Of a DNA stretch of 30,471 nt, positions 4,320 through 27,547 are shown in pieces. Source of the DNA: a virus; IMG/VR virus record IMGVR_UViG_3300005935_000085, positions 1 through 30,471 of that record; one strand, 5' to 3'. The stretch's first letter is position 1. Each line of letters starts with the position of its first letter. Made by a program: the position numbers and the translations under genes. A model generated the notes under the pieces. The model worked only from the letters and a program-made list of their open reading frames with translations. It made no database searches and had not been told where the DNA came from.

Positions 4320-4765
4320 AATTCCTCCAATAATTGTTTATGTTCGAGCATATAAGCATAACCTCGTTTATACATATCTCGCATTTCTTCAAGTTCCCCT
4401 ACAGTAAATTTTCTGGTCTTATGTCTTAAAGCCAATAATCTATCAATTTCCTCTTGTCCATATTCCTTGAGCATAAAAGCATAATATCCCGGCCAGTTAC
4501 CTCGTAATCCCATATTACTATTACACCAATAACATTGACCATGCACTCCAGTCTCTTCAAAGAGAATAGAAGATCGTCTTCCGGGAATAAAGTGTCCAGC
4601 CTGAACACATTTTACCCCGAAGGCAGGGAGTATCTTACCACAGGAACAGCATACACACTTATCAATAGTCCCAGTAGTTCTAAGAGCATCCCGTATTCGG
4701 ACATAACGGGAGAATTCATTCCATGCTTTAACCTTCCACCACCTTACTCCATGTTTTTTAGCCAT
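4316..4765 (-). CDS. ninG: NinG/Rap-like recombination nuclease
   Basis: The 149-aa protein has the NinG signature: CCSCGKILP (about 38-46), QAGHFIPGR (56-64), HGQCYWCN (75-82) and a downstream GN..GYYAFMLKEYGQEEIDRL. Lambda NinG (Rap) is a structure-specific endonuclease with a zinc-stabilised HNH-like centre that cleaves recombination intermediates. The cysteine pairs and the AGHF histidine are all present, and length is a little under that of lambda NinG. It overlaps the upstream 56-aa gene by 8 nt and sits in the replication operon next to primase and helicase. Confidence 0.82.
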   Translation of the reverse strand: MAKKHGVRWWKVKAWNEFSRYVRIRDALRTTGTIDKCVCCSCGKILPAFGVKCVQAGHFIPGRRSSILFEETGVHGQCYWCNSNMGLRGNWPGYYAFMLKEYGQEEIDRLLALRHKTRKFTVGELEEMRDMYKRGYAYMLEHKQLLEEL

Positions 4766-13740: not shown

Positions 13741-13950
13741 TTATATTCCATATATATTTCTGTTCGGTCTTATTTCACGAATACAAGTATTTACAGTACA
13801 TTCTCGATTGACATTATGTACACAGTTTATGTCAATACAATCATCGGCAGTCATCGATTCAATCCATTGATCAAACGTCAATTTGTCGGGATTCCTTGTG
13901 CATCTAACAAATTCCATATATTCCTTGCCAAAATCTTTTAACTTACCCAT
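13741..13950 (-). CDS. 69-aa cysteine-motif phage protein
   Basis: The protein contains DDCIDINCVHNVNRECTVNTC (residues 37-56). The C....C.HN...CT pattern is widespread in small phage proteins and probably binds a metal. The N-terminus (GKLKDFGKEYMEFVRC) is helical. AGGAGATTAAG precedes the start, and leader element A lies 28 bases upstream of it. Confidence 0.6.
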   Translation of the reverse strand: MGKLKDFGKEYMEFVRCTRNPDKLTFDQWIESMTADDCIDINCVHNVNRECTVNTCIREIRPNRNIYGI

Positions 13951-13977: not shown

Positions 13978-14001
13978 TATTATTGCGTGGCATCCATGCC
14001 G
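13978..14001 (-). repeat. leader element A (stem-loop plus GCAATAATA)
   Basis: In gene orientation this is CGGCATGGATGCC followed by ACGCAATAATA. GGCA and TGCC form the stem. It matches the elements at 14676, 14986 and 15169 and lies just after the stop of the 129-aa gene and before the 69-aa gene. Confidence 0.8.
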
Positions 14002-14007
14002 TGTTCC

Positions 14008-14397
14008 TTAATCCTTATCGGGCTTGTCAAATTCAGCATGGTCCACCCTATTTTCTTTGCTCGACGTGCTGTGTGTGCAATCTGTACATATATCCTCGGT
14101 TCTGCCCGTCATTTTATCATGTAAAATACAGTCAACAACAGGGCATTCCATTTTTGGTGGACCATAGGGCTTTTCTTTGACTTTATAACCGTCAAGGGTT
14201 AAGCCGATTTCCCCGGATAGGTCATGTTTTATAAGCTCGCCCTGATCTGTTATAGTTACTATTTCATGCGTCCAGTTTTTGTGGCACGTTCCCACAAGTG
14301 TTACACCTTTGGAGCTATAACACAACTCCAGTTTCAGTGTTGGTTTATCTTTGTAGTCCAACACCAAATTGATTGTTCTACGTTCATCATAACCCAT
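14008..14397 (-). CDS. 129-aa hypothetical protein with Cys cluster
   Basis: The N-terminal half is beta-rich (INLVLDYKDKPTLKLELCY, VTLVGTC, IVTITDQGELI). A CPVVDCILHDK...ICTDCTH cluster (about 85-107) follows, which may bind zinc, and then a polar tail. AAGGAGATTGAT precedes the ATG. No family is recognised. Confidence 0.6.
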   Translation of the reverse strand: MGYDERRTINLVLDYKDKPTLKLELCYSSKGVTLVGTCHKNWTHEIVTITDQGELIKHDLSGEIGLTLDGYKVKEKPYGPPKMECPVVDCILHDKMTGRTEDICTDCTHSTSSKENRVDHAEFDKPDKD

Positions 14398-14407
14398 ATC
14401 AATCTCC

Positions 14408-14497
14408 TTAACAAGTAAAAACTACCAACATAATTATAGCTAACATTAAAGCCGTGATAAAGAAAACAAAAGGCCAAAATTCTGTGCTATCAATCAT
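14408..14497 (-). CDS. 29-aa single-pass membrane mini-protein
   Basis: MIDSTEFWP is followed by one hydrophobic helix (FVFFITALMLAIIMLVVFTC). GGAAGGATTG precedes the ATG, and the stop TAA runs into the next gene's AAGGAG. Function is unknown. Confidence 0.5.
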   Translation of the reverse strand: MIDSTEFWPFVFFITALMLAIIMLVVFTC

Positions 14498-14528
14498 AAT
14501 CAATCCTTCCAATTAAGTGAAATAGTCA

Positions 14529-14654
14529 TTAAACCATAAGACCGTCGTATGGCCACCAACCATGTAATATCAAATAAAATGTTACAACTAAATATCCTAT
14601 CCAAACCCACTTCCACAACTTTGGCATTTTTACTTCTTCACCATTGATATACAT
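14529..14654 (-). CDS. 41-aa single-pass membrane mini-protein
   Basis: MYINGEEVKMPKLWKW is followed by a hydrophobic helix (VWIGYLVVTFYLILHGWW). AGGAGATTGATT sets the start at 14654; a longer frame upstream would run through leader element B and has no site. No family is recognised. Confidence 0.55.
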   Translation of the reverse strand: MYINGEEVKMPKLWKWVWIGYLVVTFYLILHGWWPYDGLMV

Positions 14655-14675
14655 AATCAATCTCCTAAAATATGT

Positions 14676-14698
14676 TATTATTGCATGGCATCCTTGCC
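14676..14698 (-). repeat. leader element B
   Basis: In gene orientation this is GGCAAGGATGCC, then ATGCAATAATA, 22 bases before the 41-aa gene. The stem is GGCA/TGCC and the AGGA in the loop resembles a Shine-Dalgarno. Confidence 0.8.
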
Positions 14699-14704
14699 CG
14701 GTCC

Positions 14705-14806
14705 TCAGAAATTCCGCCATTCAGTATATTTATGCTTGATTTTACGTTCCGGTCTCATCATGCGTTTTACAATCTGTTTGGTAATTTGTCTCAATACCTG
14801 TTTCAT
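14705..14806 (-). CDS. 33-aa highly basic mini-protein
   Basis: The protein reads MKQVLRQITKQIVKRMMRPE and then RKIKHKYTEWRNF. It is an amphipathic, strongly basic helix, a plausible nucleic-acid or membrane binder. Its leader TTTAGGAGATTAGACC is identical to that of the 47-aa gene at 14823-14966. Confidence 0.5.
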   Translation of the reverse strand: MKQVLRQITKQIVKRMMRPERKIKHKYTEWRNF

Positions 14807-14822
14807 GGTCTAATCTCCTAAA

Positions 14823-14966
14823 CTATAAAGTCGGACGACTTAATCGACTAATTATATAGCCAACCCATCGTGAGTCCCGAACAGTAATTGCTTCTTTAAG
14901 AGTCTTAGCATAATGAACGGGAACACCCTTTTTACTCTGAATTACATAATGTCTATCACGTTTCAT
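14823..14966 (-). CDS. 47-aa basic mini-protein
   Basis: The protein reads MKRDRHYVIQSKKGVPVHYA, KTLKEAITVRDSRWVGYIIS. The alternating strand-helix-strand pattern suggests a compact fold. TTTAGGAGATTAGACC precedes the ATG, and leader element C is 20 bases upstream. No family is recognised. Confidence 0.55.
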   Translation of the reverse strand: MKRDRHYVIQSKKGVPVHYAKTLKEAITVRDSRWVGYIISRLSRPTL

Positions 14967-14985
14967 GGTCTAATCTCCTAAAAGA

Positions 14986-15009
14986 TATTATTGCTGGTCG
15001 TCCTTGACC
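14986..15009 (-). repeat. leader element C, with paired base changes in the stem
   Basis: In gene orientation this is GGTCAAGGACGACC, then AGCAATAATA. The stem is GGTC/GACC where the other copies have GGCA/TGCC, so both sides of the stem changed together. This favours a real RNA (or palindromic DNA) structure. It overlaps the last codons of the 44-aa gene. Confidence 0.78.
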
Positions 15010-15122
15010 GATTCCCGTCCAGAAAACATCACTTCGATTATGACATCGTAGTATATTGACATCGACACCAACTCACCCATAATCACACTAACAGCTTCTT
15101 TTATCAACAATTCAGTCATCAT
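14988..15122 (-). CDS. 44-aa acidic hypothetical protein
   Basis: The protein starts MMTELLIKEAVSVIMGELVS and continues with IYYDVIIEVMF. Its tail SVKDDQQ is encoded by leader element C. The ribosome binding site is poor (GATAAAGTAATT), so the start (15122 or 15119) is less secure than for its neighbours. Confidence 0.45.
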   Translation of the reverse strand: MMTELLIKEAVSVIMGELVSMSIYYDVIIEVMFSGRESVKDDQQ

Positions 15123-15168
15123 AATTACTTTATCGCCAATACTTTAACCCAACTTAACTTATTTATTT

Positions 15169-15191
15169 TATTATTGCGTGGCATCCTTGCC
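15169..15191 (-). repeat. leader element D
   Basis: In gene orientation this is CGGCAAGGATGCC, then ACGCAATAATA. With its upstream flank GGAACA it is almost identical to element A over about 31 nt. It lies 47 bases before the 44-aa gene. Confidence 0.8.
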
Positions 15192-15200
15192 GTGTTCCAG

Positions 15201-15293
15201 TTATGCCCCTGTGATTCTCATAAGATATTCACCTAAAATACAGAGCAGAGCAGCAAACCCCGCCCCCACTAACATCATTTTCAAATAAAACAT
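15201..15293 (-). CDS. 30-aa membrane mini-protein
   Basis: MFYLKMMLVGAGFAALLCIL is followed by GEYLMRITGA. It has one hydrophobic helix. TTTAGGAGATTAGATT precedes the ATG. Function is unknown. Confidence 0.5.
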   Translation of the reverse strand: MFYLKMMLVGAGFAALLCILGEYLMRITGA

Positions 15294-15336
15294 AATCTAA
15301 TCTCCTAAACTGTTAAAAACTGGGTGAAAACACTAT

Positions 15337-15390
15337 CTAACACAACACCAAATACGCCAAAATTGTTAGCAACCATATTTCACGGCTCAT
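15337..15390 (-). CDS. 17-aa possible micro-protein
   Basis: The frame reads MSREIWLLTILAYLVLC, with GGGGGATAAGAAA before the ATG. It would be the first gene of the small-gene array after the promoter at 15442-15470. It is so short that a leader peptide or chance frame is equally possible. Confidence 0.33.
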   Translation of the reverse strand: MSREIWLLTILAYLVLC

Positions 15391-15441
15391 TTTCTTATCC
15401 CCCAGTAAACCCATCTTAACTTGTCAAATGCTTCTAATTAA

Positions 15442-15470
15442 AGTATAAACTATTTTTAATCGAAATGCAA
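15442..15470 (-). promoter_or_regulatory. candidate sigma70-type promoter for the small-gene array
   Basis: The minus-strand -35 is TTGCAT (15465-15470), the spacer is 17 bases and the -10 is TATACT (15442-15447). The -10 is good and the -35 weak. It lies in an AT-rich tract at the edge of the non-coding region and points toward the small-gene array. Confidence 0.45.
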
Positions 15471-16173
15471 GTAAATAATTAAAAAAACAAAAGATTTTTT
15501 AAGCCCCGTTTATAGTACAATAAGAGCGGTTACAGACTATACAGATAGTATAAGTATTATAGGACGAAGATAATCCAGTGGCTTGAGTCTATACAGTAGT
15601 AGATAAGAGGGTATGATAGAGTAAATAGTGTTATCAGGCGATAGCAACAAGTAGTTGTGGTGAGTATCCCACCTCATCCAGCCACCCTGCCTCACGCATA
15701 CACATCTTGTACACTTGTACAAGTTAAAGGCCATGTTGGGTTATAGGGTACACACAGGGTACACACAAGGCCCATCCTGGAATAGGGCTGTCAAGGAACA
15801 ATCAATGGAAAAGAAGAGACCCCGGTGGTAGGCCGGATTATCGGACGATGGACAAGGGGGGGACACCCTCCCTGAAAAATATAATAGCCCCACACAAAAA
15901 TAGCACTTATGTCAGGAGAGTTTCTCGGAAATGTATTGTTTAGGATTGAATAACGAGGATTATGTAAAATTTACGGGGATTTAAGAAATGATTCATATCC
16001 TGAGTATCAGGTGATGGGGCATCACCATAAATACGTAGGATTGATTCTAAGCGATTTGGACCTATCTGTATAGGTTTGGGACGAGTTTGGCCTTTAGAAT
16101 TGAAGCTGGGTTCCTTGCTAAGCGAGATACAGGACTAAGTGATATATATTATGACCTCGGAATAAGGCTATAA
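15471..16173. other. non-coding region with palindromes and tandem repeat, candidate origin or regulatory region
   Basis: No frame with a credible ribosome binding site covers these 700 bp, and the composition is visibly less AT-rich than that of the neighbouring genes. It contains the palindrome CTTGTAC/GTACAAG (15706-15723) and a tandem 11-mer AGGGTACACAC (15745-15766). Further on are two abutting hairpins, CCTGA/TCAGG (15999-16011) and GGTGATG/CATCACC (16010-16026), and ACCTAT/ATAGGT (16060-16075). Iteron-like repeats plus palindromes fit a replication origin, but a non-coding RNA or packaging region would also fit. Confidence 0.5.
15745..15766. repeat. tandem 11-bp repeat
   Basis: AGGGTACACAC occurs twice without a gap, 22 bases after the palindrome at 15706-15723. 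Imperfect copies of the flanking sequence (AAGGCC..T...GG..TAGGG) lie on each side. Confidence 0.8.
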
Positions 16174-20000: not shown

Positions 20001-20351
20001 ATGAAAAATTTAATAAATCAGAAATTTGGGAAATTATATGTACTGAATTTCGTACCCCCAAATAAGCATGGTGCTGAGATGCGATTTTGCCTCTGCGATT
20101 GCGGACAAGAAACAATTGTTCGAGCATCTGATCTCTGCTTCGGACGTATTCAAAGCTGTGGTTGTTTGAGAGGTGCTCATAAAAAAACAAGAATGACAAG
20201 ACAACAAAAACCTCTTCGATCAGTATATGATGAAATTTTCGACGTTGATATGCCTTATGAAAAGAAAAAAGTATTACGAGAAACTTATAATGAATTCTTT
20301 GACACTCTTGATCCAGAACTTGCTTGTGGGTTAAGGATGTTATTATTTTAA
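20001..20351 (+). CDS. zinc-domain fragment related to the HNH-like endonuclease at 21509
   Basis: In this 116-aa protein, residues 7-55 (FGKLYVLNFVPP, RFCLCDCGQETIVRASDL, GRIQSCGCLRG) match the N-terminal zinc domain of the endonuclease at 21509-22012 ([33 protein letters not shown]). The catalytic part is replaced by an unrelated charged helical tail (YEKKKVLRETYNEFF). It may be a decayed paralogue, or a DNA-binding regulator kept without the nuclease. It is the first rightward gene. A purine-rich leader with AAGGGA lies 10-15 bases before the ATG. Confidence 0.65.
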   Translation: MKNLINQKFGKLYVLNFVPPNKHGAEMRFCLCDCGQETIVRASDLCFGRIQSCGCLRGAHKKTRMTRQQKPLRSVYDEIFDVDMPYEKKKVLRETYNEFFDTLDPELACGLRMLLF

Positions 20352-20916: not shown

Positions 20917-21522
20917 ATGAAAGACGAAAATAAAAAGGGATTAAAGTCCGGAGCTATTTTTAGTGTTGATTATTTAGAAACTGCTACACGGCTCGTGGCA
21001 TCGGGGATGACAGAGGTAGATGTGGGGTATTTTCTTGGAATTACTCCGGCAAAAATTAAAACTTGGAAAAAAAGACACCCGCTATTCAAACAGGCTTTCA
21101 CGGATGGTAAGAGACTGGCAAAATCATACTTGATTGCTAAGGGGCTTCGTGCTGCTGCCGGTTATCAGTATGTTGAGAAAAATGTAAAATATAAAAAGAA
21201 AGTGCTTGATGATGGGACGGAGCTTGAGTATGCTGCTGAGACAAGCGAGTTTCACAAAGAGATGAAGCCTGATAGCACACTATTGATGTTTCTTCTTTGC
21301 AATATGTCACGTCAACTCAAAGAAGAAGAGCCCTGGGTGTCAGTTCACAAGGTTGAAGTAAAAGATGATAAAACTATAAATGTAAAATTATCGGGTAAAG
21401 TTGCCACAGAAGAGATAAGGCGATTGGCAGGAGCATTTTTACCGAGAGACGTCATTGAGGCAGAATTCGAGAAAAAGAAACCAAAGAAGATAAAAGGGAA
21501 GACAGAAAATGAAAAAGATTGA
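20917..21522 (+). CDS. terS: terminase small subunit (putative)
   Basis: The 201-aa protein has an N-terminal HTH ([32 protein letters not shown]). The segment [25 protein letters not shown] follows, then [21 protein letters not shown]. This is the arrangement of small terminase subunits that recognise the packaging site and of related phage HTH proteins. The C-terminus is lysine-rich. The next terminase gene, terL, is separated only by an inserted endonuclease gene. The start has GAGGGATAG upstream. Assignment rests on the HTH and on position. Confidence 0.72.
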
Positions 21523-22012
21523 TGTACAAAATATGCAAGGTCAAAGATTTGGAAGACTTGAGGTTTTAGAAGGAGTGTCTTCAGACAAAAGAAATCATAC
21601 TCAATGTCTTTGTTTATGTGATTGTGGTGTAGAAAAAGTTATTAGAGCAAGTAGTCTTCGTTCAGGAACAACTCAAAGTTGTGGTTGCCTTCGCCGTGAA
21701 CAATCCGGGGCTGTTCCTAAACATGGGCACAGTAAAGTTGGGGAGGTAACAAGAGAGTATTGGACTTGGAATCACATGAAACAACGATGTCTGAATCCAA
21801 ATGTGTGGAATTACTATAATTACGGTGGTCGTGGTATTACTGTCTGTGATAGATGGTTAGAATTTGAGGCTTTTCTTGAGGATATGGGTGAGAAACCGGA
21901 AGGAATGTCAATTGATCGAATAGATAATGATGGAGATTATGAGCCGTCTAACTGTAGATGGGCTACATCAACAGAACAAATGAATAATCGCAGATGTTCT
22001 GTGAGGGTATGA
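21509..22012 (+). CDS. HNH-like homing-type endonuclease inserted between terS and terL
   Basis: The 167-aa protein has an N-terminal zinc domain ([25 protein letters not shown]). The phage module follows: [52 protein letters not shown] and EQMNNRR. The DRID...NCRW part resembles an HNH core (DHID...NLRW) in which the usual His is replaced by Arg, so catalysis is uncertain. Such free-standing genes behave as mobile elements. It overlaps terS by 14 nt and terL by one base, fitting neatly into the operon. Confidence 0.75.
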
Positions 22013-24075
22013 TGGCAAAGAGACTGAGTACCCTTTTCAATGATCCTGATATGTTGCTAAATGCTATACCGAGAGACATAGAAGAGAACCTCAGATGGCG
22101 TATAGGGCTGCACTCTAAAATGTCGCAGGATGCTGGGATGCTTCAGGCTTATTTGGAGTTGTGTAGAATTAAACCACAGATTTTATTCAACTCAGCCTTT
22201 TTTGTATATGAAGCAAGGGCCATGCCAGGGAGACAGAACGTCCCGTTCATATTAAGACCGAAACAGGAAATTGGAATTGAGCGTTTGAAAGTTGCTATTG
22301 ATAATGCAACTGAAATGAATCCACACAATTTGATATTTGATAAAAGTCGTGAAGAGGGTGCAACAGAAATTATTTGCAAGATGTTTGGTGCTTATTTTTT
22401 GTTGTACGAGGATATGTCTTTTCTTGTTGGTTCACGAGCAGAGCATTTTGTAGATCAGGGTGTTCGTGTTCCAACTAAGGGTACAAGAGTCCCCGGTTTA
22501 CATAAATCTCTTATGCACAAAATACTTTATGGTTTATGGAATTTGCCTGGGTATATGAGACCTAATATGTTTAAGAGCCATTTATCATTGGAGAATTTGG
22601 ATAATGGTTCCAAAATAGGTGGTGAAGCAACTACAGATAATTTTGGTGCAGCGGATAGAGCAAAGGCAGTGCTTGTAGATGAAGCTGCCCGTATTGAACC
22701 AAATGTAGCTCAGTATATCATTGATAATATTCAAGATGTCACCCCCTGTTGTATTTTTAACAGCACCCATTTCAAGTGGGGGAGCGGACACCCTTACGCA
22801 AAACTTATCAATTCCAATAAGATTGAGGTTATTACTTTGGGGTGGGAAGATAATCCTGTAAAGAACGGGGGATTGTATAATTCACCTGAAATGGATGTAA
22901 TTCAGATAAAAGATATTGACTATTATAGAGAGAAATGTCCTGTAATATTTAATGAGATAGAGGCTCATAAGTCCTTTATTTACAGTGACTTACAGTTGAA
23001 AGTTGCTGAATCAACAGATGAAATCCAAGAGCAAATGGGAGAAATAAGTTTTGTTGCCGATGGTGGTGAAAGACTTTTTAGTTGTGATAGAAGTCCTTGG
23101 CTTGATGGGCAGGAAGCTCGTGGGCGTAGAAAACAGGATATTGCAATAAATATTTTACGTATTCCACAGGGATCAGCTGACCAGTTCTTTGATGATATGA
23201 ACTTGGTTAGAATTGAAAAGAAGTTTGTCAAGGAACCGACTTATACGGGGACATTGCATTACGAGATAGAGAAGAAAAAACCAGTAGATATTAAATTCAA
23301 ACGTGGTGGTCCGAAATTATTAAAATGGTGGGGTCCACTTCCAAATGGAAAACCAAGACAGGATCATAATTATATTGTATCTTGTGATATAAGTAGAGGG
23401 ACAGGTGCAAGTAACAGTGTTGCTGCTATTACTGATGTAAATACAAGCGAGGTTGTTGGTTTATATGTTAATCCAAATATTGATGTAACTGATTTTGCCG
23501 AACTTGCTGTTGCTTTATGTTTGTGGACTGGTGGTGGATCACGTAATACTTATTTGATTTGGGAGCAAAATGGTCCGGGAGATAGTTTTGCGAATAGAAT
23601 ACGTAAGATTGGTTATGCTTTTGTTTATTATAAAGTAAATGAAAGAACAAAATCCCGTAAGCGTGGTAAAAATAAGACGTATGGTTGGACTTCAACCACA
23701 GGTATAAACGGTACTAAGAATGCTCTTCTTGGTGATCTTGATGCTGCTATTGATGAATCCATTCAAATAAATAAGAGATTCCCATTTTTAATAATACATG
23801 ATATGCAAACAATTAGGGAATTAAGAGATTATATTTTTATGGGTGATAGGATTGATGTAGGTCTTAGTTCTCAATCAACAGAATCAAGTGGTGCTCGGTA
23901 TGCTCATGGTGACAGAGTAATTGCTACAGCCATGACTATGTTGGCTATGAAAGAACAACCAAAGGCTAAGGTCAAGCAAGCACAGAAGGTTCGGAAGAAT
24001 TCAATGCTTTATAGGATGCAGGAGAGAAAAAGAGAATATAGTAGGAAGAAATGCGAAGTCGGAAAATGGTTATAA
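22012..24075 (+). CDS. terL: terminase large subunit
   Basis: The 687-aa protein has an N-terminal ATPase with a degenerate Walker A (DKSREEGAT, K111 to T118), Walker B AVLVDEAAR (D223, E224) and coupling motif NST (250-252). The RNase H-like nuclease has IVSCDISRGTGASNS (D459), LIWEQNGPGD (E518) and AHGDRVIATAM (D634). It drives DNA into the prohead and cuts the concatemer. It is somewhat longer than typical TerL, with extra sequence between ATPase and nuclease. GAGGG is placed for ATG 22012; ATG 22009 is too close to the site. Confidence 0.93.
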   Translation: MAKRLSTLFNDPDMLLNAIPRDIEENLRWRIGLHSKMSQDAGMLQAYLELCRIKPQILFNSAFFVYEARAMPGRQNVPFILRPKQEIGIERLKVAIDNATEMNPHNLIFDKSREEGATEIICKMFGAYFLLYEDMSFLVGSRAEHFVDQGVRVPTKGTRVPGLHKSLMHKILYGLWNLPGYMRPNMFKSHLSLENLDNGSKIGGEATTDNFGAADRAKAVLVDEAARIEPNVAQYIIDNIQDVTPCCIFNSTHFKWGSGHPYAKLINSNKIEVITLGWEDNPVKNGGLYNSPEMDVIQIKDIDYYREKCPVIFNEIEAHKSFIYSDLQLKVAESTDEIQEQMGEISFVADGGERLFSCDRSPWLDGQEARGRRKQDIAINILRIPQGSADQFFDDMNLVRIEKKFVKEPTYTGTLHYEIEKKKPVDIKFKRGGPKLLKWWGPLPNGKPRQDHNYIVSCDISRGTGASNSVAAITDVNTSEVVGLYVNPNIDVTDFAELAVALCLWTGGGSRNTYLIWEQNGPGDSFANRIRKIGYAFVYYKVNERTKSRKRGKNKTYGWTSTTGINGTKNALLGDLDAAIDESIQINKRFPFLIIHDMQTIRELRDYIFMGDRIDVGLSSQSTESSGARYAHGDRVIATAMTMLAMKEQPKAKVKQAQKVRKNSMLYRMQERKREYSRKKCEVGKWL

Positions 24076-24085
24076 GGAATCGAAT

Positions 24086-25849
24086 ATGAGTCTTCTCAAT
24101 CAGAAGGATGTACGTAAAGGTTTTACCCAGAGAGTTCGAGAAGCTGCCAGAATTTGGACAAGAGCGGATGAGCCTCGTTTGGCTAAGAGAAATCGGATGG
24201 TTAGTAGTTGGGTTTCTGGGTATTGTAAGAGTGGGACTAATGCTAAAGCTCATACTATGAATCTTATGGATAGGGCTATTGGTATTTTAGTACCTTATTT
24301 ATCTATGTCTGATCCGAATGTGCATTGTGAAGCTCGAATACCCAAATTAAAACCTTGGGCATATACAACTCAACTTGCTATGAATCATTTGTTAAAAGAG
24401 ATTAAATTTTCAAAAACAGTATTGAGACCTTCAATTTTTAATTCTATGTTTGGCTCTGGTATTGTGAAGACGGGTATTATGAAGGAATGGGAGTCAAGTA
24501 TATACGGAAATAATCTTGATATTGGACAACCATACGCTGCTGCTGTGGATGATGAAGATTACATAGGTGATGTATCGGCGAACACCAGAGAAGAATTTGA
24601 AATGGAAGGTAATTATTATGTAATGCCTACTCAACTTGCAAAAGAATTTTTTGGTGCAAGACATGCTGATAGTATAACACCGTCTTTTAAGCTTTTTGGT
24701 GATAATAGTATTAAAGATGTTGTAAGGACTACTACACAGGGTTCAGATTATCATACTTTACGATATTGGACTAAATTTATGGATGTATATCTTCCAGATG
24801 AAGGTATCACACTCACACTCCTTGCCGATGGTAATTATTATAGAATATTAAAAACTACTGTATTTGATGGTCCTGAAGATGGTCCTTATGATTTACTTGG
24901 GTACAAATATGCTATGAAACAACCTATGCCCATACCTCCGGCATGGGGTTGGATTGATATGGATACAGCCTTAAATGTTCTTATCAATAAAATGAGAGTA
25001 CAGGCAGAAGCTCAGAAAAATATATTAGTGTATGCTGCTGAAGCTCAAGAAGATGCTGATCGTATGGCAGCAACAATAAATAATGGTACTTGTAAAGTTA
25101 ATAATCTCGATGCTGTTAAAGCAATTGAATTAGGTGGAACTAATCCTGAAAATTATGAGTGGGTTAGTTATATTGAACAACAGTTTTCTATTCAAGGTGG
25201 TAATTTATATCAGCTTGGTGGGAGGGGGACACAGGCCGAAACACTTGGACAGGAGCAGATGTTGATGACAAATGCTTCTCGTATCGTGGATGATATGGTA
25301 AATTCAGTATATGATTTTACCCAGAGTGTAATGAAGAAGTTTGCTTGGTATATTTGGAATGACCCAATGATTCAAATTCCCACTATCAAGAGAATCGAGG
25401 GTGCTGGGAGTGTTGAAGTGATATTTGATAAGTATGCAAGAGAGGGTGATTTCTATGATTTCAACTTCAAGATTCAACCTTATAGTATGCAACGGTTCAA
25501 TCCGTCAATACAAAGTCAAAAGTTGATGCAGTTCTTAGCTGGTTGGGTTTTGCCTGTTTTACCTATGGCGGCACAACAAGGGGTTAAACTTAACATCGAT
25601 GCTGCAACTACAAAGATAGCTGAATATTTACAATTAGATATACAGGACATTTGGCAAGCGGCAACCCCAATGGGTGGTAATGATATGGGACCATACCAAC
25701 CGTCGCAGGGCCAAGTTTCACAGAAGCAATCCAAAATGACCAGTCAAGGGGACGATAGATTTGGAAGTTCAGGGGCATCTCGTATGGGAAACTTTCAGCA
25801 ATATGCAAACAGTCCGAGAGCCGGTCAATCTTCGCCACCTCAAAAGTAG
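24086..25849 (+). CDS. portal protein
   Basis: The 587-aa protein follows terL by ten bases. It contains NLMDRAIGILVPYLSMSDP, a central IPPAWGWIDMDTALNVLINK and a long helix with QAEAQKNILVYAAEAQEDAD. EWVSYIEQQFSIQGGNLYQL and QAETLGQEQMLMTNASRIVD come next, the typical portal 'stem/wing' region with the Q-rich helix. The C-terminus is low-complexity (Gln, Ser, Pro, Gly). It forms the dodecameric DNA gate at one capsid vertex. The call rests on these patterns and on position. Confidence 0.85.
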   Translation: MSLLNQKDVRKGFTQRVREAARIWTRADEPRLAKRNRMVSSWVSGYCKSGTNAKAHTMNLMDRAIGILVPYLSMSDPNVHCEARIPKLKPWAYTTQLAMNHLLKEIKFSKTVLRPSIFNSMFGSGIVKTGIMKEWESSIYGNNLDIGQPYAAAVDDEDYIGDVSANTREEFEMEGNYYVMPTQLAKEFFGARHADSITPSFKLFGDNSIKDVVRTTTQGSDYHTLRYWTKFMDVYLPDEGITLTLLADGNYYRILKTTVFDGPEDGPYDLLGYKYAMKQPMPIPPAWGWIDMDTALNVLINKMRVQAEAQKNILVYAAEAQEDADRMAATINNGTCKVNNLDAVKAIELGGTNPENYEWVSYIEQQFSIQGGNLYQLGGRGTQAETLGQEQMLMTNASRIVDDMVNSVYDFTQSVMKKFAWYIWNDPMIQIPTIKRIEGAGSVEVIFDKYAREGDFYDFNFKIQPYSMQRFNPSIQSQKLMQFLAGWVLPVLPMAAQQGVKLNIDAATTKIAEYLQLDIQDIWQAATPMGGNDMGPYQPSQGQVSQKQSKMTSQGDDRFGSSGASRMGNFQQYANSPRAGQSSPPQK

Positions 25850-25858
25850 GGGATAGTA

Positions 25859-26509
25859 ATGAAAAAATATATTATAACAGTTATATTGTGTATATTTTTA
25901 TTTGCAGGAATTCTTCTTAGGACGAATGTAAGATATATCCCAAAACAAGTTAAGATGATTGAACTTTCAATGCAGTCGGTTGTACAAGTTACTCATCCTA
26001 ATTGGCCGGGTTCTCCAGCATCAGGATTTTATATAGGTAATGATATTGTAGTAACAGCAGGTCATGTATCTGATACGGAACCAAATGGGGTAATATTTGA
26101 AGATGGTACAGAATACGAAGTATTAAAGAGTATTACTCATCCAGATTATGATTGTGGTTTTCTGCTACTTCATAGTGTGAAGAAACCTGCTCTTGAATTT
26201 GATTCAGTAAAATCCAAACGTGGTGAGAAATTATTTATTTTAGGAAACCCTTTTCGGTTAATATTTTGTGCAACAAAAGGAATAGTATCCAGTGTTAAAG
26301 CAGATTGTGATGAGTTTTTTGGAAAAGTGATATTGATACAAACAGATGCAGTATCATTTCCGGGGAATAGTGGTTCTTGTGTATTAGATGATGATGGGGA
26401 GATACGTGGTGTTCTTGTTGGTGGCAGAGGAAGATCAAGTGGGATTTCATTTGTTGTTCCTACTGAAGCAATATTAAAAGCATTAAAAGAAGCAAAATTG
26501 GAGATATAG
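25859..26509 (+). CDS. membrane-anchored trypsin-like serine protease
   Basis: The 216-aa protein has an N-terminal hydrophobic anchor or signal (residues 4-20, IITVILCIFLFAGILL). A chymotrypsin-fold protease follows: VVTAGHVS (H69), HPDYDCGFLLL (D98), FPGNSGSCVL (S171), then GVLVGGRGRSSGISFVVPTEA as the substrate-pocket strands seen in HtrA/Deg proteases. There is no PDZ domain. It occupies the usual slot of a prohead protease, but those are normally cytoplasmic ClpP-like or herpesvirus-like enzymes. The anchor suggests action at or beyond the membrane. The start follows the portal stop by ten bases with GGGGATAGTA. Confidence 0.82.
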   Translation: MKKYIITVILCIFLFAGILLRTNVRYIPKQVKMIELSMQSVVQVTHPNWPGSPASGFYIGNDIVVTAGHVSDTEPNGVIFEDGTEYEVLKSITHPDYDCGFLLLHSVKKPALEFDSVKSKRGEKLFILGNPFRLIFCATKGIVSSVKADCDEFFGKVILIQTDAVSFPGNSGSCVLDDDGEIRGVLVGGRGRSSGISFVVPTEAILKALKEAKLEI

Positions 26510-27247: not shown

Positions 27248-27547
27248 ATGAATGTAGTACCAACAAAGGGGATTATTGTATTAAAATCACCTGAGAAATT
27301 AGATAAGAATGTTACAGCAGGGGGGATACATCTTCCTCAAAATGTAAAGCAACCAAATACAGACAAGGTTGGTATTGTTTGTGCAACCGGAAAAGATGTT
27401 AATTGTGTGAAAGTTGGAGATATTGTAATAGTTGATCCTCGTAATTTAGTAGTTGCTGTTATCAATGATGAGGTTCATATCTTTGCAAAAGAAGAAAATA
27501 TTGTAGCAATTCTTGACAATAAGGAGGCAGATGATGACTTATCTTGA
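27248..27547 (+). CDS. GroES-like co-chaperonin
   Basis: The 99-aa protein follows the Cpn10 layout: VVPTKGIIVLKSPE, AGGIHLPQNVKQPNTDKVGI, then CVKVGDIVIVDPRN, EVHIFAKEENIVAIL. The mobile loop (around TAGGIHLPQ) carries the hydrophobic tripeptide that docks on GroEL. Phages such as T4 (gp31) make their own co-chaperonin to fold the capsid protein in host GroEL. The location three genes before the capsid gene fits the same job. TTTGGAGACAG precedes the ATG. Confidence 0.85.
   Translation: MNVVPTKGIIVLKSPEKLDKNVTAGGIHLPQNVKQPNTDKVGIVCATGKDVNCVKVGDIVIVDPRNLVVAVINDEVHIFAKEENIVAILDNKEADDDLS

What the first reader, a model, noticed from the sequence alone, without database searches (positions are those of the whole stretch)
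13978..15191. Four stem-loop leader elements in an array of micro-genes
Four copies of a motif (CGGCAAGGATGCC, then GCAATAATA in gene orientation) precede small genes by 20-47 nt. One copy has both stem sides changed together (GGTC/GACC instead of GGCA/TGCC), which indicates selection for structure. The AAGGA in the loop mimics a Shine-Dalgarno. Seven or eight genes of 17-47 aa share these or the TTTAGGAGATTAGA leader. This looks like a cassette array with a common RNA signal, perhaps for processing, stability or coordinated translation, or a recombination site by which small genes are shuffled.
Basis: partly seen in the sequence, partly recalled or inferred. Interest (0 to 1): 0.68.

Follow-up and report, generated by a model that had tools for sequence, protein, structure and literature searches.

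The report
Phage gene-array hairpins resembling CsrA sites
An uncultured phage family puts a small RNA hairpin, matching the best binding site of the bacterial master regulator CsrA, between its tiny early genes, so the phage may either place those genes under the host's own regulator or soak that regulator up.

Summary
Four minus-strand copies lie between micro-genes at 13978-15191. Related phages carry the same element: 26 copies in 7 IMG/VR genomes (terminase 40-89% identical where measured), always on the coding strand and just after an upstream stop codon where that gene could be called. A covariance model from part of the set found 9 unseen copies in two more genomes (E 2e-6 to 8e-4). 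The stem covaries (19 double changes, 0/500 shuffles).

The loop is the key. In 26/26 copies it is A-N-G-G-A-Y, with N taking all four bases, and 22/26 are closed by C-G. This is the published high-affinity CsrA/RsmE site: an ANGGAX hexaloop directly on a stem. In 22/26 copies another GGA, in most cases that of the next gene's Shine-Dalgarno, lies 16-60 nt downstream, inside the 10-63 nt one CsrA dimer can bridge.

I conclude these are most likely CsrA/Rsm-binding sites in a phage early operon, acting as translational operators and possibly as a sponge. Binding is inferred, not shown: the host is unknown and no csrA was found in the phages searched. A conserved tail (GYAATWATM) is unexplained. 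Gene order differs around the hairpins between relatives, but nothing shows that they drive shuffling.

The parts
13978..14000 (-). Element copy 1: hairpin GGC[ATGGAT]GCC plus tail GCAATAATA, between the 129-aa and 69-aa genes
   Evidence: (R1 37.3 bits)
14676..14698 (-). Element copy 2: GGC[AAGGAT]GCC plus tail GCAATAATA, between the 33-aa and 41-aa genes
   Evidence: (37.6 bits)
14986..15009 (-). Element copy 3: GGTC[AAGGAC]GACC plus tail GCAATAATA; the upstream 44-aa gene ends inside the tail
   Evidence: (35.3 bits)
15169..15191 (-). Element copy 4: GGC[AAGGAT]GCC plus tail GCAATAATA, after the 30-aa gene
   Evidence: (37.8 bits)
15337..15390 (-). 17-aa micro-gene MSREIWLLTILAYLVLC (15 of 17 residues shared with G001)
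15201..15293 (-). 30-aa micro-gene with leader TTTAGGAGATTAGATT
14988..15122 (-). 44-aa ORF after copy 4, no clear Shine-Dalgarno
14823..14966 (-). 47-aa gene after copy 3; AGGAG begins 26 nt after the loop start
14705..14806 (-). 33-aa gene upstream of copy 2 (ortholog in G001 in a different order)
14529..14654 (-). 41-aa gene after copy 2; AGGAG begins 29 nt after the loop start; its G001 ortholog also follows an element
14408..14497 (-). 29-aa membrane-like micro-gene without its own element
14008..14397 (-). 129-aa gene upstream of copy 1
13741..13950 (-). 69-aa gene after copy 1; AGGAG begins 33 nt after the loop start

Best explanation
Each element is an RNA-level binding site for a CsrA/RsmA-family protein of the host. 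It is a short hairpin with an ANGGAY hexaloop, placed in the untranslated gap between two micro-genes of a phage early operon. Shown: the hairpin exists, covaries, is oriented with the genes, and matches the published high-affinity ANGGAX-on-a-stem site in 26 of 26 copies. Inferred: CsrA binds the hairpin, and in most copies the same dimer also contacts the GGA of the next gene's Shine-Dalgarno 16-60 nt downstream, blocking translation of that gene. Further inferred: 2-6 such sites per genome on an abundant early mRNA may also draw CsrA away from host mRNAs. Which of the two effects matters more cannot be told from sequence. That the operon is early is itself inferred from its small genes and its place beside the replication genes.
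For: Loop statistics over 26 copies: A1, G3, G4 and A5 invariant, N2 = A14/C5/G4/T3, X6 = T24/C2; closing pair C-G in 22/26. Published site: ANGGAX hexaloop directly on a stem, with A and GGA contacted and N and X looped out; the RsmE-bound hcnA loop is ACGGAU, seen here in several copies (PMC4005645). SELEX consensus RUACARGGAUGU, mostly 4 bp or fewer, and one dimer bridging sites 10-63 nt apart (PMC7652899). GGA 16-60 nt downstream in 22/26 copies. Covariation: 93.3% of cells paired, 19 double changes, 0/500 shuffles. Model R1 built from G000-G003 finds 9 unseen copies in G825 and G826. Density control: ANGGAY hairpins occur at 0.14 per 10 kb in relatives without the array and in unrelated viral loci, with no cluster of three. 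The stems are weak (-4.8 to -5.5 kcal/mol for the window copies), as for SELEX CsrA hairpins, which fits a protein site better than a terminator.
Against: The host is unknown, so whether it has CsrA is untested; terminase searches of about 800 genomes from two phyla gave nothing, without a positive control. No csrA in any of 23 records searched; G825 and G826 were not searched. The tail GYAATWATM is nearly as conserved as the loop and no CsrA rule explains it. Four copies lack a GGA in bridging range. The element keeps its distance to the upstream stop more tightly than to the downstream start, which fits a simple operator less well. Several relatives show no element, though many are fragments.
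Confidence: 0.62

Rival explanations
1. The hairpin and tail are an operator for a phage-encoded RNA-binding protein that times or represses translation of the micro-genes, and the match to the CsrA loop is convergent.
For: Loop and tail are both conserved, more than a CsrA site needs. Phages such as T4 encode translational repressors and RNA-processing proteins (review PMC3014915, listed, not read in detail). No csrA in the phages searched.
Against: No candidate protein was identified; the micro-genes tested match no Pfam family with confidence. The invariant/free pattern of the loop is exactly that of CsrA/RsmE.
Confidence: 0.17
2. The element is an intercistronic RNA processing or decay site: the AU-rich tail is a ribonuclease cleavage site beside a small hairpin, perhaps protected when CsrA is bound.
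For: It sits directly after the upstream stop codon (loop begins 2-3 to about 15 nt after it in most copies). The tail is single-stranded in the folds of the four window copies. CsrA is reported to protect CsrB from RNase E (review PMC7652899).
Against: The tail is a specific 9-mer rather than a loose AU-rich run. No RNA-end data exist. A 3-5 bp stem alone is a poor stability element.
Confidence: 0.12
3. The element is a DNA-level signal: a promoter with an extruded hairpin (N4 type), or a -10 motif in the tail.
For: The tail resembles a -10 box (AATAAT). Hairpin-plus-downstream-sequence promoters are known in N4 (own knowledge).
Against: No -35 at a constant distance by inspection. No RNA-polymerase family matched the largest unassigned ORFs of G001 and G002 (the PF00940 genome search had a silent control). 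In L115 a TTGACT-17-TATAAT promoter lies upstream of the element, which would put it in the transcribed leader (by eye).
Confidence: 0.05
4. The element is a recombination site by which micro-gene cassettes are exchanged.
For: Gene order and content around the elements differ between the window and G001, with orthologs permuted.
Against: No recombinase was identified and no consistent cassette boundary. The hairpin's stem changes while its loop, read on the RNA strand, stays fixed, which a DNA crossover site does not require. Turnover of early genes is common in phages (own knowledge).
Confidence: 0.04

Closest known systems
CsrA/RsmE-binding hairpins (hcnA leader, RsmZ SL2, SELEX ligands)
   Same: ANGGAX hexaloop directly on a short stem, mostly C-G closing pair, GGA unpaired, a second GGA at the Shine-Dalgarno within bridging distance
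   Different: Here in a phage operon, repeated between genes, next to upstream stop codons, with a conserved GYAATWATM tail that the published sites I read about lack
Csr/Rsm sponge sRNAs (CsrB, RsmX/Y/Z)
   Same: Several CsrA-type hairpins on one presumed transcript
   Different: Not a compact non-coding RNA: the hairpins are about 200-1300 nt apart with genes between them; no Rfam family matches the window
Phage- and plasmid-borne csrA/rsm genes (PMC7366521, PMC8450108, PMC11879866)
   Same: Mobile elements engaging the host Csr/Rsm pathway
   Different: Those supply the protein; these phages appear to supply the RNA sites, with no csrA gene found in the records searched
T4 translational operators and RegB sites
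   Same: Short RNA signals near phage early-gene start sites
   Different: RegB recognises GGAG, and T4 operators differ in loop and position (own knowledge); 26/26 copies here have GGAY

Membership tests
CsrA/RsmE high-affinity binding site | Hexaloop A-N-G-G-A-X with A and GGA invariant | tested here: met
   26/26 copies; consensus from PMC4005645. The copies were partly found by patterns or scans that ask for GGA, but the CM and the tail-anchored scan turned up no other loop.
CsrA/RsmE high-affinity binding site | Loop placed directly on a base-paired stem | tested here: met
   93.3% of cells paired, 19 double changes, 0/500 shuffles
CsrA/RsmE high-affinity binding site | C-G closing base pair preferred | tested here: met
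   22/26 C-G, 3 A-U, 1 G-C
CsrA/RsmE high-affinity binding site | Second GGA 10-63 nt away, usually at the Shine-Dalgarno (for bridging targets) | tested here: met
   22/26 copies, 16-60 nt; not required in all known targets
CsrA/RsmE high-affinity binding site | Actual binding by a CsrA-family protein of the host | not testable with these tools
   Host unknown; needs gel shift or CLIP
Csr/Rsm sponge sRNA | Compact non-coding RNA of a known Rfam family | tested here: not met
   No Rfam match in the window; the hairpins are interleaved with genes
Phage-borne csrA | A PF02599 protein encoded in the genome | tested here: not met
   0 of 4 and 0 of 19 records, positive controls rang; G825 and G826 not searched
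N4-type hairpin promoter | A dedicated phage RNA polymerase | tested here: inconclusive
   No RNA-polymerase family on the large unassigned ORFs of G001 and G002; PF00940 search had no positive control; genomes may be incomplete
Intrinsic terminator | Stable GC stem followed by a U run | tested here: not met
   3-5 bp stem, -4.8 to -5.5 kcal/mol in the window copies, followed by GCAAUAAUA

The most novel reading that the evidence does not exclude
It would be an RNA-based capture of a bacterial global regulator by a virus.
Probability: 0.25. Interest if true: 0.82.

Novelty: new variant of a known kind. Interest (0 to 1): 0.64.

Why it matters
Phages are known to carry csrA genes, and Rsm/Csr controls CRISPR-Cas and other host programmes, but in the papers I could search I found no report of phage mRNAs bearing arrays of canonical CsrA sites. 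If confirmed, it gives a sequence signature by which phages that exploit Csr/Rsm can be found without knowing the host. It also supplies a ready set of natural candidate high-affinity sites with varied stems and all four bases at N, and it makes testable whether a virus obeys or disarms a bacterial global regulator.

Tried and rejected
Single-protein searches for polA and the 400-aa gene in IMG/VR found no relatives; the DNA pattern did. The genome contigs pattern scan gave 14 hits; those I looked at read as chance or coding matches, so no host came from it. Terminase searches in about 800 genomes of two phyla were silent and had no positive control. Portal search of GenBank phages: no match; the large tail-region protein points to BPP-1-like podoviruses only weakly (21-27% identity). 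MAFFT on unequal flanks misaligned the stems, so I anchored on the loop. The Hfq/ARN reading of the tail (AAUAAUAA) was dropped because many relatives have AAUUAUA. Terminator reading rejected. Sample numbers in the literature gave only an anoxic Antarctic lake for one relatives' sample, with no virus-host link. Background clusters in L154, L160 and L164 appear to be repeats inside a gene, not elements.

Full report
What was checked. The window is a 30,471-base IMG/VR virus record. Its left part is replication genes on the minus strand, among them a DnaB-like helicase, a primase-like protein and an exonuclease. The right part is structural genes on the plus strand, including a podovirus-type major capsid protein (below the family's cut-off). 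Between the replication block and DNA polymerase A lies an array of micro-genes on the minus strand. The four elements sit in that array.

Anatomy of the element. In RNA sense each copy is a short stem (3-5 bp in most copies), a hexaloop, a matching 3' arm, 0-2 spacer bases and a 9-base tail. In the window the loops are AAGGAU, AAGGAC, AAGGAU and AUGGAU and the tail is GCAAUAAUA each time. The folds of the window copies are weak, -4.8 to -5.5 kcal/mol. ViennaRNA draws three of the four window copies with a 4-nt loop because A1 and U6 of the hexaloop can pair; I use the hexaloop because copy 3 and the stem changes in relatives fit it. The core 13-mer alone is not above chance; stem, loop and tail together are.

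Relatives. A gapped DNA pattern over IMG/VR found true copies in three other phages. Whole-record comparison showed that they belong to the same phage family: terminase 89% (G001), about 52% (G003) and about 40% (G002) identical to the window's. Terminase and polymerase alignments brought in further relatives. Later patterns, one of them with the stem in the other orientation (GCC/GGC), found G825 and G826, which also carry family terminases. The total is 26 copies in seven genomes: window 4, G001 6, G002 3, G003 2, G007 2, G825 4, G826 5. All are on the strand of the array's genes.

Statistics. Model R1 was built from ten sequences of G000-G003. Over 0.9 Mb of relatives' sequence it found known and new copies with a clear gap to noise. 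On G825 and G826, which were not used to build it, it found all nine copies. The alignment of 25 copies has 93.3% of cells paired and 19 double changes, which no shuffle of 500 reached; sliding the partner by 1-3 columns destroys the signal. Stems change between GGC/GCC, GGTC/GACC, GGGA/TCCC, GGCG/CGCC, GGCA/TGCC and AGCC/GGCT. One caveat: copies within an array are related to each other, so these are not 19 independent events, and the alignment was fitted to the structure.

Background. ANGGAY hexaloop hairpins with at least three GC pairs occur about 0.14 times per 10 kb, both strands together, in 56 family loci without the array and in 33 unrelated viral loci, and never three within 3 kb. 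In the seven array phages every such hairpin lies in the array, on its coding strand. A scan anchored on the tail rather than on the loop found hairpins beside it almost only with GGA loops; the two exceptions, in L074 and L095, have 3-nt loops and no array.

Position. In the window, G001 and G002 the loop begins 9-15 nt after the upstream stop codon, apart from copy 3, where the upstream gene ends inside the tail. In G826 the stop codon TAG overlaps the 5' arm in five of five copies. The next start codon is 29-73 nt from the loop where one could be called near by (G003 is an exception). In 22 of 26 copies a GGA lies 16-60 nt downstream of the loop's GGA, usually in the Shine-Dalgarno. No downstream Shine-Dalgarno-led start was found for window copy 4 and for one G002 copy.

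Why CsrA. Over 26 copies, loop positions 1, 3, 4 and 5 are invariant (A, G, G, A), position 2 takes all four bases and position 6 is U (24) or C (2); the closing pair is C-G in 22. The NMR work on RsmE defines the high-affinity site as an ANGGAX hexaloop directly on a stem, with A and GGA contacted by the protein and N and X looped out; the loop of its hcnA ligand is ACGGAU (PMC4005645). A CsrA review reports the SELEX consensus RUACARGGAUGU, hairpins mostly of four or fewer pairs, and one dimer bridging sites 10-63 nt apart (PMC7652899). I know of no other protein family with this exact pattern of fixed and free loop positions; that is own knowledge and not a test.

What is inferred. Binding itself, the identity of the protein, and the effect are not shown. 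The operator model (hairpin plus Shine-Dalgarno bridged by one dimer) fits most copies. The sponge model fits the repetition and the copies without a following Shine-Dalgarno. The tail remains unexplained: its consensus over clades is roughly GYAATWATM, which argues against a simple Hfq ARN run, and no -35 motif sits at a constant distance by inspection. A ribonuclease site guarded by the hairpin is possible. In L115, a more distant relative, a similar hairpin with tail GCAATTATC lies downstream of a sigma-70-like promoter and upstream of a Shine-Dalgarno, which would place it in a transcribed leader.

Weak points. The host is unknown. No csrA was found in 23 records; this does not bear on the host. 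Not every relative has the element, although many of those are fragments. The polymerase-promoter alternative was tested only by family searches on large ORFs.

The recombination idea has only circumstantial support: orthologous micro-genes are permuted between the window and G001.

Literature. Phages and plasmids carrying csrA genes are known (PMC7366521, PMC8450108), knock-down of a phage CsrA homologue reduces plaque formation (PMC11879866), and Rsm controls CRISPR-Cas (PMC8450108). Searches for phage mRNAs or sponges with CsrA sites found none among the listed papers, but the library lacks most subscription journals.

Noticed in passing
window 15337-15390, minus: A 17-aa ORF (MSREIWLLTILAYLVLC) with a Shine-Dalgarno is 88% identical in G001 (MRREIWILTILAYLVLC), so very short peptides in this array appear to be real genes.
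   Followed up: partly
window 14529-14806 and 15201-15390; G001 about 24000-24910: Orthologous micro-genes are in swapped order between the window and G001 (33-aa/41-aa and 17-aa/30-aa), with elements in between.
   Followed up: partly
G001 (L062) about 4329-4375 and 4566-4612: Two copies are followed by a near-identical stretch of about 45 nt (TATCCTAAGTATTAGGTAATGAAKTACCATACTAT and flanks), which looks like a recent duplication.
   Followed up: no
L383-L385 (G828) 35674: A phage with no detectable family terminase or other shared protein carries one matching element (GGCC[AAGGAT]GGCC TGCAATTATAA) whose loop begins 17 nt after a stop codon.
   Followed up: partly
L386 (G829) 3080: GCC[AAGGAT]GGC directly before GCAATTTTAGGAGTAGATCATG in another phage without a family terminase, a CsrA-type loop next to a Shine-Dalgarno.
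   Followed up: no
L115 13480-13600: A TTGACT-17-TATAAT promoter, then GCCCCG[ATGGAG]CGGGGC A GCAATTATC, then GGAG and ATG: a single leader that may show the element in a transcribed context.
   Followed up: partly
window 27248-27547 and 25859-26509, plus: A GroES-like co-chaperonin and an HtrA/DegP-like serine protease (both below the curated family cut-offs) are encoded within the structural gene block.
   Followed up: no
window 20001-20351 and 21509-22012, plus: Two related proteins with the motif FG.L..LCDCG...SCGCLR flank the gene before the terminase; they look like homing-endonuclease-type inserts.
   Followed up: no
window 15400-16170: A stretch of about 800 bases with no convincing gene between the array and the polymerase side, likely carrying early promoters.
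   Followed up: no
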